The notes under the pieces were generated by a model that was not told where the DNA came from, made no database searches, and saw only the letters and a list, made by a program, of their open reading frames with translations. From Microbacter sp. GSS18 (GTDB lineage Bacteria > Actinomycetota > Actinomycetes > Actinomycetales > Microbacteriaceae), in NCBI GenBank assembly GCA_029319145.1, contig CP119753.1:868001-932000 (forward strand): a stretch of 64,000 nucleotides of DNA, given 5' to 3'. Made by a program: the position numbers and the translations under genes. Positions 25,152-33,198 of this stretch are shown here, one piece after another; position 1 is the stretch's first letter; each line of letters starts with the position of its first letter.

Positions 25152-25598
25152 GTGCGCTTGAGCTTCCTCGATCGCTTCCGTCCGGTCGGAGCCCCGGGTG
25201 CGGCCGCGACGGCCGTTCCGGCCGCGGACCGGCGCGGACCCGAGGAAGAGCTCGCGCCCGTCTTCGCAGCGCTCGCTCCGGACGTGCGTGCCGCCGAGGA
25301 AGCGGTCGCGGCAGCGCAGAGGTCCGCGGCGGACGCGCGCGAGGAGGCGCGGGCGTCCGCGGCGTCGATCGTCGAACGGGCCCACGCGGATGCCGCGGCG
25401 GCGCGCGCGGAAGCCGCGCTGCAGGTCGAGAGCGCCGCCGCGGCGGCCGATCGGGACATCGTCGACGCGGCCCGCGCCGAGGCCGACCGCATCGACGATG
25501 CGGCGCGGCGGGCGCTTCCCGCCGCCGTCGACCGCGTGGTGGGACGCCTGCGCGAGGAGCTCCTGGAGCGACCAGAGAAGGCGGAGACCGTCTCGTGA
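25152..25598 (+). CDS. V/A-type ATPase peripheral-stalk subunit (G/H-like)
   Basis: First gene of the rotary ATPase operon. The product (148 aa) is Ala/Arg/Glu-rich. A long coiled coil from about residue 45 to 115 (AAQRSAADAREEARASAA onwards) is typical of the G/H stalk partner of subunit E. The N-terminal 45 residues are Pro/Ala-rich and probably flexible. GTG 25152 lies 10 nt after GGGAGG (25136-25141). Sequence alone does not identify this subunit firmly; position at the head of a complete V/A operon carries much of the call. Confidence 0.75.
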   Translation: MRLSFLDRFRPVGAPGAAATAVPAADRRGPEEELAPVFAALAPDVRAAEEAVAAAQRSAADAREEARASAASIVERAHADAAAARAEAALQVESAAAAADRDIVDAARAEADRIDDAARRALPAAVDRVVGRLREELLERPEKAETVS

Positions 25599-26512
25599 TC
25601 GGCGACTGGACCGCGGCGGCGGTGCGTGCGCGTTCGACGAGCGCGCGGCGGCTGGGGACGGGCGGTGCCGACGCCGTCGCCCGCCGGTCGGATCTCGCTT
25701 CGGCGATCGAGGCGCTCGGAACGAGCCTCTACGCCTCGCGCGTGGCGACGTCCGACGACCTCGCGGCCGCCCAGCGCGACGTGAAGCGCGCGGTCCTGTG
25801 GGAGCTGCGGGTGCTCGCGGGATGGATGCCGCCCGCGGGCACACGGCTCGCTCGGGCACTCGCGGCCGTGTTCGAGTACGAGGACCTCGTGGCCGTCGTG
25901 GATGCGCTCGAGCGCGGCGTCCAGGCTCCGCCGCGCTACGATCTCGGCGCGCTGGCGACGGTGTCCGCGGGGGTGTGGGAGGCCGCGTCTCCCGCGGCCA
26001 TCCGCGCGGACCTGCGGCACGGCGTGTGGGGCGATCCGGGAGCCGAGCCGTCGGCGATGGCCGATGTGCTCGCGGCGAGCCTCCTGCGCAGGATCGCATC
26101 CGCGGCTCCCGCGACCGCGTCCTGGGCGACGGGTGCGCTCGCGCTGCGGGCCGCCCGCATCCGCGTCGTGGAGGGTCGGCAGCCGCCGGATCGATTCGTC
26201 GCGCTCTCCCGGGCGGTGCTCGGCGAGGCGTGGGTCGCGCGCCGCGAGCTGGCAGGTCTCCGGGCGGCGCTCCCGCCGTCGGGCGCCGCGCCGCTGACCG
26301 GTGTCGACGACCCTGCGCAGCTGTGGCGTGCCGAGCAGGGGTGGCGGTCTCGCGCCGAGAGCGACGGGTTCCGTCTGCTGCGCGACCGCGGTCTCGGCCC
26401 CGAGACGGCGGTCGGCGCGTTCGCCGTGCTGTGGAGCGATGCGCTGCGCGTGGCCGAGGCCCTCGCGGCGGCCGATGCCGGGGGAGGGGAGCTCCTCGAT
26501 GTCGTGGCGTGA
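25595..26512 (+). CDS. V/A-type ATPase subunit C (central-stalk socket)
   Basis: A 305-aa, almost all-helical protein matching V-type subunit C/d, which seats the DF shaft on the membrane rotor ring. Features are VRARSTSARRLG near the start, a conserved-looking MPPAGTRLARALAAVFEYEDLVAVVDAL block, and repeated helical units to the C terminus. GTG 25595 overlaps the previous stop (GTGA). In Thermus and Enterococcus operons subunit C follows E; here it comes before subunit I, an unusual order. Confidence 0.82.
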   Translation: MIGDWTAAAVRARSTSARRLGTGGADAVARRSDLASAIEALGTSLYASRVATSDDLAAAQRDVKRAVLWELRVLAGWMPPAGTRLARALAAVFEYEDLVAVVDALERGVQAPPRYDLGALATVSAGVWEAASPAAIRADLRHGVWGDPGAEPSAMADVLAASLLRRIASAAPATASWATGALALRAARIRVVEGRQPPDRFVALSRAVLGEAWVARRELAGLRAALPPSGAAPLTGVDDPAQLWRAEQGWRSRAESDGFRLLRDRGLGPETAVGAFAVLWSDALRVAEALAAADAGGGELLDVVA

Positions 26513-27824
26513 GGCGCTGACGCCGGTGCGCATGGAGCGGGTCGCCTTCGTGGCACCCGCGTCGGGGGTCCGTCCGATGCTCGCCGAGATCGCCGCGAGC
26601 GGGAGCGTCGAACTCGACCTCCCGCGCCACGCCGACGCCGGCCCGGACGAGTTCGACCGCGTGTGCGACGCGGCGGTCGTGCGCGACGGTCTGGCCGGCT
26701 ACGTCGGGTGGACGCCGGCGAGGGCGCTGCCGCGGCTGGCCGAGCGGCTGGCGCCGGCCGGTGCCGCCGCCGTCCCGATCCGCCGCCCGCGCGGCGTCGA
26801 GCCGCCGACGATGCTGTCGGGCGAGAGCGGAGGCGCGGGCATGTCCCGCACGCTCGTCGACACCTACGGCACGGTGCCCTACCGCGATGTCGACCCGGCG
26901 CGTGCGGCGGCGTTCGCGTACATCGTCATGTTCGGCATGATGTTCGGCGATGTCGGTCACGGCGCCATCCTGCTCGCCATCGGACTGCTGCTGCGCACGG
27001 GACGCCCGCGCCGCTTCGCCGGCCTGCGGCGCGCGTGGGCATTCGTGTCGGCGGCGGGCGCCGCGGCGATGGCATTCGGGTTCCTCTACGGCGAGGCGTT
27101 CGGCCCCACCGGTCTCGTGCCGGTGCTGTGGCTGGCGCCCCTCGAGGAGCCCGTGCCGTTCCTCATCGCGGCCATCGTGCTCGGGTCGGTGCTGCTGGCC
27201 GCCGCCTACGCGATCGGCACGGTCAACCGCGTGCGCGAGGGCGGATGGGGATACGCGCTGTACGCCCGCAGCGGCGTCGCCGGATCACTGCTCTTCCTCG
27301 CCGCCGCGGCGCTGGCCGGGGGCCTCGTGTGGAGCCTGACCTGGCTCGTCATGGTCGCCGCCGCACTGGCCGTCCTGGCCGTCGTGTTCCTTTCCATCGG
27401 CCTCTACGTGGCATCGGGCGGGAAGTTCGCGGGGGTCCTGCAGACCGTCATCGAGGTGGGCGACACCGTCATCCGCCTCGGGTCCAACGTGGTGTCGTTC
27501 GCACGCCTCGCGGCATTCGGATTGACCCACGCGGCACTGCTCCTGGTGGTCTGGCAGGGCACGACCGCGCTGTGGGCGCTCGGCCCCCTCGGCATGATCG
27601 CCGCCGTCGTCCTGTTCGTCGTGGGAAACGTGCTGACGTTCGGACTGGAGGCCCTCGTCGCGGCCATCCAGGCCCTGCGTCTGTCGTACTACGAGCTGTT
27701 CTCCCGCGTCTTCGAGTCCGAGGGGCGTCCGTTCCGCCCCTGGACCCCCGCTTCGATCCCGTCCACCGACGAGGGCGAGGTCGCCGCCGGCGACCGGCCC
27801 GTTCCTGAGAGGAGACCCGCATGA
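26499..27824 (+). CDS. V/A-type ATPase membrane stator subunit I (short form)
   Basis: A 441-aa subunit a/I homologue. The membrane half is well conserved: [15 protein letters not shown] near residue 140, about seven to eight helices, and the essential proton-path arginine R336 in [13 protein letters not shown]. The usual length is 600-700 aa; the difference lies in the N-terminal cytoplasmic arm, which here spans only about 125 residues. ATG 26499 has GGGGAGGGGAG upstream and overlaps subunit C by 14 nt. The shortened arm must still reach the peripheral stalk, so stator geometry may differ. Confidence 0.88.
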
Positions 27825-32171: not shown

Positions 32172-32779
32172 ACACCCCGGCGAGCCGACCGGCACGGGCG
32201 CGGCTGGAGCGGCGCCTCGCGGTCGCCCGGCACGCCGCGGAGCTGCTCGAGCGCCGACAGCGCATCATGGCCGACGAGGTCGAGCGGCTCGAGTTGCAGG
32301 CCGATCGCAGCCGTGCCGAGTGGGAGCGCCTGGCCCGCGACGCGGCCGTATGGCTCCGGCGTGCGACCGCACTCGATGGCCGCGAGCGCATTCACGAGGC
32401 CGCGCCGCTCGAGGAGGCTGCCGCGACGGTGACGTGGAGCTCCGCGATGGGGGCGCTGCGCCCGGACGAGATCGCGTGCGAGCTGCCGCCGAAGCGGGCG
32501 GTCGGCGGGAGCTCGGCGCTGGCCCTGGCCGCGGCCGCCCATCGCGACGCGCTCGTCGCCGGCGTCCGACACGCCGTCATCGACCACGCCCGGGCGCGTC
32601 TGGCCGCGGAGCTGCAGGCGACGCAGGTCCGCCGTCGGGCGATCGAGCGCCGGTGGGTGCCGCGTCTCGAGCAGGATCTGCGCCGCATGCGCGACCAGCT
32701 CGAGCAGCAGGACCTCGAAGAGACGCTTCGTCTGCGCTGGGCGGCCGATCTCAGCGCCGAAGAGAGGAGCCCATCATGA
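32168..32779 (+). CDS. V/A-type ATPase central-shaft subunit D
   Basis: A 203-aa protein with two long helices flanking a short middle section, as expected for the rotating shaft. The N-terminal coil is ARLERRLAVARHAAELLERR and the C-terminal coil spans about residues 140-195 (VRRRAIERRWVPRLEQDLRR). GTG 32168 overlaps subunit B (GTGA). It completes an A3B3-DF-C-EG-I-K inventory within this operon. Confidence 0.9.
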   Translation: MNTPASRPARARLERRLAVARHAAELLERRQRIMADEVERLELQADRSRAEWERLARDAAVWLRRATALDGRERIHEAAPLEEAAATVTWSSAMGALRPDEIACELPPKRAVGGSSALALAAAAHRDALVAGVRHAVIDHARARLAAELQATQVRRRAIERRWVPRLEQDLRRMRDQLEQQDLEETLRLRWAADLSAEERSPS

Positions 32780-33198
32780 CCGTGATCCTGGTCGCGGTGC
32801 ACGACTCCACCGCCGCGTTCGAGGCGGCCGATGCCGCCATCGCACTGGCGGCGCGCCTGGGTGCGCGCCTGCGCGCGGTCGCCGTGGTCGACCCCGAGCC
32901 GGTGACGGGCGGGCCGCATCCCACGACGGCTCTCGTGCATCTCGAAGACGGCGCGGACGCGGCGCTGCGCCATGTGGTGCGCGTGGCCGACGAGGCGAGC
33001 GTGCCGGCGACGACCACGCGGCGGCACGGGCGCATCGCGCGCGAGATCCTCGCCGAGGCGCGCGAATGCTCGGCGGACCTCGTCGTCATGGCCGTCGTCG
33101 ACCGCCCGGGCCACGCGATCCCGCGCGTCGGCAGCCATACGCTCCGCGTGCTCGAGCATGCGGAGGTGCCGGTGGTCGTCGTGCCGCCGCGGATCTGA
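32776..33198 (+). CDS. Universal stress protein A-like protein
   Basis: A 140-aa UspA-fold protein (TVILVAVHDSTAAFEAADAA, then LVVMAVVDRPGHAI, then VPVVVVPPRI). The usual ATP-binding G-2x-G-9x-G(S/T) motif is not intact: the corresponding stretch reads GHAIPRVGSHT, so ATP binding is doubtful. ATG 32776 overlaps subunit D by 4 nt, making it the tenth cistron of the ATPase operon. Co-expression suggests a role in controlling or sensing the ATPase, which is inference. Confidence 0.88.
   Translation: MTVILVAVHDSTAAFEAADAAIALAARLGARLRAVAVVDPEPVTGGPHPTTALVHLEDGADAALRHVVRVADEASVPATTTRRHGRIAREILAEARECSADLVVMAVVDRPGHAIPRVGSHTLRVLEHAEVPVVVVPPRI

What the first reader, a model, noticed from the sequence alone, without database searches (positions are those of the whole stretch)
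25152..33198. Complete V/A-type rotary ATPase operon in an actinobacterium
Ten cistrons in one direction, nearly all overlapping by 1-14 nt, encode all subunits expected for a working V/A-type ATPase (G/H, C, I, K, F, E, A, B, D). Most Actinobacteria are known to rely on an F-type enzyme, so a second rotary ATPase is an accessory trait. The order (G/H-C-I-K-F-E-A-B-D) differs from the Thermus (G-I-L-E-C-F-A-B-D) and Enterococcus layouts because C comes before I.
Basis: partly seen in the sequence, partly recalled or inferred. Interest (0 to 1): 0.7.

Follow-up and report, generated by a model that had tools for sequence, protein, structure and literature searches.

The report
Compact V/A-type proton pump operon
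This bacterium carries, besides its normal ATP synthase, a patchily distributed rotary proton pump of a trimmed-down actinobacterial type whose stator arm has lost the half that normally holds a second stalk.

Summary
In detail: window 25152-33198 holds nine genes for every subunit of a V/A-type rotary ATPase plus a universal stress protein. The genome also has an F-type enzyme, and 1 of 198 sampled genomes of the genus, this one, has the V/A operon: an accessory enzyme. F plus A/V enzymes in one genome are well documented (ProAD, PMC11738941), so that part is not new. The operon falls in one clade (49 of 49 sampled members, UFBoot 100), by record titles mostly Actinomycetes, with gene order G-C-I-K-F-E-A-B-D (58 of 80 loci complete, 22 partial but consistent). 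In this clade subunit I lacks about 245 residues, its helical arm and distal lobe. That lobe docks the second EG stalk in Thermus (PMC7367684 passages). F lacks its C-terminal tail, and G has a conserved N-terminal extension. I read it as a horizontally acquired H+ pump with a simplified stator, possibly with a single stalk. Stalk number, ion and direction are untested. A new variant of a known kind.

The parts
25152..25598 (+). subunit G-like stalk protein (148 aa) with a conserved N-terminal segment of about 40 aa (LxRFRPxGxPG..GVPAD...EL) before the coiled-coil-like part
   Evidence: R8, R10, P15, G16, E33, L34 invariant in 35 of 35; no Pfam hit for the window protein, weak V-ATPase_G hits in 5 of 35 members
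25595..26512 (+). subunit C (eukaryotic d), the rotor cap, 305 aa
26499..27824 (+). compact subunit I (eukaryotic a), 441 aa: membrane domain complete, cytosolic arm reduced to the proximal lobe
   Evidence: PF01496; N-terminal mapping by profile comparison; R336 and R394 invariant in 49 of 49
27821..28261 (+). subunit K (c-ring proteolipid), 146 aa: poorly conserved N-terminal hydrophobic hairpin plus one highly conserved c-hairpin with the ion-binding Glu
   Evidence: PF00137 at residues 83-142; [10 protein letters not shown] in 71 of 73 sequences, one substitution in each of the other 2
28263..28490 (+). subunit F, 75 aa, lacking the C-terminal tail of canonical F
   Evidence: PF01990 positions 1-64 of 91; alignment with three canonical F proteins of 104-115 aa
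28487..29023 (+). subunit E, 178 aa (peripheral stalk)
   Evidence: PF01991, 27.1 bits against cut-off 24.2
29011..30744 (+). catalytic subunit A, 577 aa
   Evidence: NF003220 648 bits against cut-off 470; P-loop GGFGAGKT in the sequence
30741..32171 (+). non-catalytic subunit B, 476 aa
   Evidence: NF003235 585 bits against cut-off 349
32168..32779 (+). rotor shaft subunit D, 203 aa
   Evidence: PF01813 79.6 bits against cut-off 25.7
32776..33198 (+). universal stress protein (140 aa), overlapping the end of D by 4 nt
   Evidence: PF00582; a Usp gene starts within 300 nt of D on the same strand in 25 of 74 testable related loci

Best explanation
The operon encodes an accessory, proton-translocating V/A-type rotary ATPase of a compact subfamily found mainly in Actinomycetes, acquired horizontally and kept beside the housekeeping F-type ATP synthase. 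It most likely works as an ATP-driven H+ pump: A3B3 hydrolyses ATP, the D-F shaft turns the C-capped K ring, and protons move between the K glutamate and the invariant arginine of I. Its stator is simplified: I keeps only the membrane-proximal lobe, and the helical arm and distal lobe, which in Thermus hold the second EG stalk and lock free Vo against C, are gone. SHOWN here: complete operon, clade membership, domain loss in I, tail loss in F, extra conserved segment in G, F-type enzyme in the same genome, patchy distribution. INFERRED: horizontal gain, H+ specificity (from sequence), pumping as the main direction, one EG stalk or a rearranged anchor in which the new G segment takes part, and a stress or pH/ion-homeostasis role.
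For: Complete gene set. Compact I residues 10-45 match only canonical residues 4-39 (probability 92-93; all other tiles 7.6 or less) and compact residues about 57-115 match canonical about 284-344 (probability 96), so about 245 residues are replaced by about 12. N-domain length is 114-173 aa in the 51 of 72 compact sequences where it could be measured intact and 322-354 aa in 17 of 17 canonical ones. [quoted passage not shown] Monophyly 49 of 49, UFBoot 100. Of the Na+ ligands of PMC2359735 (passages), Ser/Thr66 and polar 67 are Gly-Ile after the Glu in 73 of 73, and the first-helix stretches printed hold no Gln. F-type beta is over cut-off in 22 of 25 chosen genomes with V-type genes. Horizontal gain: 1 of 198 in the genus; hexapeptide gene, tig and clpP beside the operon in 0 of 13 related loci; the site without the operon in 8 of 20 regions from the genus.
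Against: No structure or biochemistry was found for any member; stalk number, direction and ion are not measured. Absence in the other 197 sampled genomes of the genus could partly be loss, and M. thalassium also has a close I homologue (86%). The placement of the window's enzyme next to a Sinomonas sequence has only 67% support. ProAD reports that several rotary ATPases in one genome usually differ in ion (1,137 of 1,388 genera), which speaks mildly against H+ for an enzyme beside an F-type one; the ion of this F-type enzyme was not tested. The Usp link holds in only 25 of 74 loci. The whole-length profile alignment of I does not by itself show the N-terminal match. K has an extra N-terminal hairpin that was not modelled, so the ion-per-turn ratio is unknown.
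Confidence: 0.72

Rival explanations
1. The compact enzyme still has two EG stalks: both bind to the remaining proximal lobe, or the second is held by the new N-terminal segment of G, by C or by the membrane. It then works like an ordinary V/A-ATPase with a re-engineered collar.
For: E and G are both retained, and G has an invariant N-terminal motif in the clade where I lost its distal lobe, which looks like compensation.
Against: In the passages read, the two EG tips of Thermus bind I at different sites (PMC5758568; PMC7367684), and a review describes the A-ATPase collar as made by subunit a alone, contacting both stalks (PMC6131620).
Confidence: 0.35
2. It is a second ATP synthase used under special conditions, not a dedicated pump.
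For: The Thermus V/A enzyme synthesises ATP (PMC5758568 passages), and a paper on Melissospora reads an A/V operon in an actinobacterium that way (PMC12451618 passages).
Against: The housekeeping F-type enzyme is present, and the accessory, patchy pattern fits a conditional pump better. No direct test.
Confidence: 0.22
3. It is a Na+ pump for salt or alkaline stress.
For: About half of the A-type enzymes in ProAD are predicted Na+-specific (4,927 of 9,167), and enzymes sharing a genome usually differ in ion; some related operons lie near P-type cation ATPases and TrkA-like genes.
Against: All 73 K sequences have Gly-Ile where Na+ enzymes have Ser/Thr and a polar residue, and the first-helix stretches printed hold no Gln, against the Na+ rule in PMC2359735.
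Confidence: 0.06
4. Nothing structural is new: the short I is a wrong start codon or a broken gene.
For: Start codons in GC-rich genomes are often misassigned (recalled).
Against: Some homologues are short even from stop to stop (L011 446 and L029 432 aa; L156 446 aa). The 120 best homologues listed are 416-455 aa. The missing part is internal: sequence on both sides of it is kept in the alignment of 49.
Confidence: 0.03

Closest known systems
Thermus thermophilus V/A-ATPase (two-stalk, H+)
   Same: Subunit set A, B, D, F, C, E, G, I, K/L; c-ring Glu and essential Arg of I; H+ type by sequence
Enterococcus-type V-ATPase and canonical V/A operons of Bacillota and of other Actinomycetota
   Same: V/A enzyme encoded in one operon
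   Different: Those read here have I of 641-728 aa from the first Met or 656-672 aa as annotated, the order G-I-K-E-C-F-A-B-D in E. gallinarum and Peptoclostridium, and fall outside the compact clade
Compact V/A operons already deposited under generic names (e.g. Streptomyces fungicidicus plasmid p1; Arthrobacter, Cryobacterium, Demequina)
   Same: Same clade, order and short I; in S. fungicidicus annotated as 'V-type ATPase 116kDa subunit family protein', with hypothetical proteins for G, F and E
   Different: Nothing essential; the window is a further member of this clade, for which I found no description
N-ATPase (accessory F-type pump; recalled, and named in PMC11738941)
   Same: Accessory rotary pump beside a housekeeping enzyme
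   Different: F-type subunits and different gene set

Membership tests
V/A-type rotary ATPase (by homology) | V-type catalytic A and non-catalytic B subunits | tested here: met
   NF003220 and NF003235 above cut-off; tree
V/A-type rotary ATPase (by homology) | D and F rotor shaft | tested here: met
   PF01813 and PF01990 above cut-off; F is shortened
V/A-type rotary ATPase (by homology) | subunit C/d cap between shaft and ring | tested here: met
   a sequence profile alone found no solved V-ATPase chain
V/A-type rotary ATPase (by homology) | I membrane domain with essential Arg, K ring with Glu | tested here: met
   R336 invariant in 49 of 49, aligned by eye through with Thermus R563, which PMC5758568 names as essential; Glu in 73 of 73
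V/A-type rotary ATPase (by homology) | E and G stalk subunits | tested here: inconclusive
   E met, just over cut-off; G only by position and weak hits in 5 of 35 members
Two-stalk Thermus/Enterococcus architecture | two-lobed N-terminal arm of I that anchors two EG stalks | tested here: not met
   arm and distal lobe missing
Two-stalk Thermus/Enterococcus architecture | two EG stalks per complex | not testable with these tools
   needs structure or native mass spectrometry
Na+-translocating V-ATPase | complete Na+-ligand set in K | tested here: not met
   only the c-hairpin was examined, not ligands from the extra N-terminal hairpin
F-type or N-type ATPase | alpha/beta subunits over the F-type family cut-offs | tested here: not met
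   A and B score far below the TIGR01039, TIGR00962, TIGR03305 and TIGR03324 cut-offs wherever these are listed
Accessory enzyme | separate housekeeping F-type ATP synthase in the same genome | tested here: met
   (alpha and beta only; the other F-type subunits were not searched)

The most novel reading that the evidence does not exclude
A whole actinobacterial clade of V/A-ATPases runs with a single, differently anchored peripheral stalk and without the arm-to-C lock that inhibits free Vo. It would be a one-stalk V-type motor, convergent with F-type enzymes, with G's new N-terminal segment as the anchor.
Probability: 0.38. Interest if true: 0.75.

Novelty: new variant of a known kind. Interest (0 to 1): 0.52.

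Why it matters
V-type enzymes are described as having two or three peripheral stalks where F-type has one (PMC4355294 passage), and the cytosolic arm of subunit a is called a regulatory hub in eukaryotes (title of PMC10313074, listing only). A large natural clade that lost the distal half of the arm and the tail of F would be a natural experiment on what the second stalk, the Vo lock and the F tail are for, and a smaller target for structural work. It also points to an accessory ion pump in Streptomyces, Arthrobacter and relatives for which I found no study, and whose genes are partly annotated as hypothetical proteins.

Tried and rejected
A first pass with stop-to-stop ORF models drifted into wrong frames of the GC-rich DNA. 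On recount 4 of the 80 B hits (L043, L044, L051, L063) proved to lie inside A, so they are cross-hits and were dropped: 58 loci are complete, not 59 as printed.

A sequence profile of C found no solved V-ATPase structure (one hit, an unrelated protein, E 0.35). The identity of C therefore rests on Pfam hits of other members and on fold. A Foldseek search of the model was not possible; only the second-look aligner ran.

Terminator- or promoter-like sites: none found in 24900-33600, which says little for a high-GC actinobacterium.

GC of the operon is 74.2% against 70.8% for the rest of the window, but GC3 is not raised, so this is weak support for transfer. The donor cannot be named (67% support).

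Na+ pump, wrong-start and broken-gene readings were considered and put low (see rivals). Plasmid carriage: 17 plasmid records match A; 4 of them (0.93-3.1 Mb, Streptomyces and Embleya) have 59-62% identity, like the compact type. Of these 4, clade membership was checked in the tree only for S. fungicidicus p1.

Literature: 9 searches ran. Passages only were seen of PMC6131620, PMC5758568, PMC7367684, PMC6863869, PMC4154653, PMC10656485, PMC12451618, PMC2359735 and PMC4355294; of PMC11738941 parts 1 and 2 of 3 were read, not its supplement or database. Nothing in the text seen describes a clade with a short subunit I.
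Full report

ACCESSORY ENZYME. The genome (4.03 Mb, one contig, 100% complete) has an F-type alpha/beta pair at 1.632-1.636 Mb; the other F-type subunits were not searched. In 25 genomes with V-type genes that I picked from the surveys, F-type beta exceeds its family cut-off in 22. In the other 3 it is fragmentary or not found: G797 461.1 bits against 462.85, G1217 two partial hits, G1190 no hit beyond V-type and weak ones at 85% completeness. Presence of subunit D (PF01813): 1 of 198 in the genus, 4 of 299 in the family, 7 of 297 in the order, 93 of 396 in the phylum. Presence of V-type A (NF003220 over cut-off): 15 of 394 in the class. Each tally includes the window's own genome and is a sample of a larger group.

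HORIZONTAL ACQUISITION (inferred). In 8 of 20 regions fetched from other members of the genus, the hexapeptide-repeat gene that precedes the operon here is followed by tRNA-Pro, tig, clpP1 and clpP2 without a V-type A gene; in 3 of these 8 the gap is about 2-3.4 kb. A was found in 0 of 20. In the other 12 regions the order could not be read out completely. In the window the operon lies between that gene and tRNA-Gly/tRNA-Pro/tig. In 13 compact-type loci from other genera checked with the same queries, the hexapeptide gene, tig or clpP was found in 0 of 13; one of them, L025, is a 9-kb contig with little flank. Loss in the other species is not excluded.

A DISTINCT CLADE. In 58 all nine genes are found in the order G-C-I-K-F-E-A-B-D; the other 22 are partial and none departs from that order. 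Canonical operons read here are G-I-K-E-C-F-A-B-D (E. gallinarum and Peptoclostridium) or D first (Rubrobacter). A tree of A+B for 68 taxa, 49 of them compact, puts all 49 in one clade, UFBoot 100, stem 0.63 substitutions per site (midpoint root, no F-type outgroup). Two Actinomycetes operons (G522 = L161, G1344 = L175) group with Rubrobacter instead. By record titles the members are mostly Actinomycetes; some MAGs labelled Acidimicrobiaceae or Acidimicrobiales also have them, one genome outside the class (G797) has compact-type A and B, and two MAG labels (Proteobacteria, Sulfotelmatobacter) may be mis-binned.

THE COMPACT ARCHITECTURE. Subunit I is 441 aa here, 416-455 aa in the 120 homologues listed, and 338-487 aa in the 120 listed for a more distant query. 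The N-terminal domain before the membrane-domain motif is 114-173 aa in 51 sequences (72 examined, 20 not matched by the motif, 1 cut by a contig end), against 322-354 aa in 17 of 17 canonical I proteins (starts taken as first Met, position counted from the model match). Profile comparison in tiles shows what is gone: compact residues 10-45 match canonical 4-39 (probability 92-93, other tiles 7.6 or less), and compact about 57-115 match canonical about 284-344 (probability 96), so about 245 residues in between are missing. The whole-length comparison starts at compact residue 15 against canonical 245 and so does not show the N-terminal match; the tiling does. Thermus I aligns over nearly its full length to the canonical profile; read by eye from that alignment, the lost part covers roughly Thermus residues 39-265. 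[quoted passage not shown] Both EG tips bind the arm at different sites (PMC5758568, passages). Subunit F is 75 aa (matched part 68-87 aa in 72 loci) and lacks the tail of three canonical F proteins of 104-115 aa. G is 148 aa against 102-114 aa in three canonical references and begins with a conserved segment, 6 columns invariant in 35 of 35. The compact G model matches canonical G ORFs only from about position 36 on.

MECHANISM. The catalytic and ion-translocating parts look intact: P-loop in A, R336 and R394 of I invariant in 49 of 49, Glu of K in 73 of 73. After that Glu comes Gly-Ile in 73 of 73, where Na+ enzymes have Ser/Thr and a polar residue, and the first-helix stretches printed hold no Gln; by the rule in PMC2359735 (passages) this predicts H+. 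Against it, ProAD finds that coexisting enzymes usually differ in ion (1,137 of 1,388 genera). Pumping rather than synthesis is inferred from coexistence with the F-type enzyme. The number of stalks is the open question: loss of the distal docking site suggests one stalk; the new G segment could also re-anchor a second.

CONTEXT. A Usp gene starts within 300 nt of D in 25 of 74 testable loci. Within the flanks held (up to about 10 kb; 63 loci have at least 2 kb upstream, 72 at least 2 kb downstream), 21 of 80 loci have a member of a P-type ATPase cluster and 8 of 80 of a TrkA-like cluster (names judged by eye from one sequence each, and for the P-type ATPase from annotation). This fits stress and ion homeostasis but proves nothing.

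WHAT IS KNOWN. Multiple rotary ATPases per genome are catalogued: 890 bacterial genera with one F and one A enzyme (PMC11738941, parts 1-2 of 3 read). Gain of an A/V enzyme in an actinobacterial genus is reported (PMC12451618, passages), and horizontal spread of V-type operons in archaea with an acid-tolerance role (PMC6863869, passages). Nothing in the nine literature searches, as far as listings and passages show, describes a clade with a truncated I arm; the held library misses most subscription papers, so absence from print is not claimed beyond that.

Noticed in passing
flanks of L045, L059, L061, L066, L071, L076, L078; L196: Streptomyces operons lie near a P-type ATPase (about 930-990 aa) and Usp genes, several also near TrkA-like genes; L196 has CBS-domain, Usp and P-type ATPase genes: a possible ion-homeostasis island.
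   Followed up: partly
L198 8543-12287 (Pseudonocardia broussonetiae plasmid): Only V-type F, A and B genes are annotated, with a recombinase upstream and a P-type ATPase downstream; the other subunits are not annotated in the stretch read.
   Followed up: no
window 27821-28261 and K of related loci: K carries a poorly conserved N-terminal hydrophobic hairpin with a basic loop before the c-hairpin; in L177 and L178 the open frame is only 118-120 aa. Signal, assembly element or ring part is unknown.
   Followed up: partly
L161 (G522) and L175 (G1344): Two Actinomycetes carry a different, Rubrobacter-like V/A operon with D first and full-length I, so at least two V/A types occur in the class.
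   Followed up: partly
L165 (G812): A long-branched A-B-D set at a contig start; no other subunit was found by the compact-type models.
   Followed up: no
L051: A compact operon in Lentzea terrae without an intact B hit between A and D; frameshift, sequencing error or decay was not examined.
   Followed up: no
window 24231-24959 (-): Divergently oriented hydrophobic 242-aa protein next to the operon, no Pfam hit.
   Followed up: no
plasmid records: A subunits 59-62% identical to this one occur on replicons of 0.93-3.1 Mb called plasmids in Streptomyces and Embleya.
   Followed up: partly
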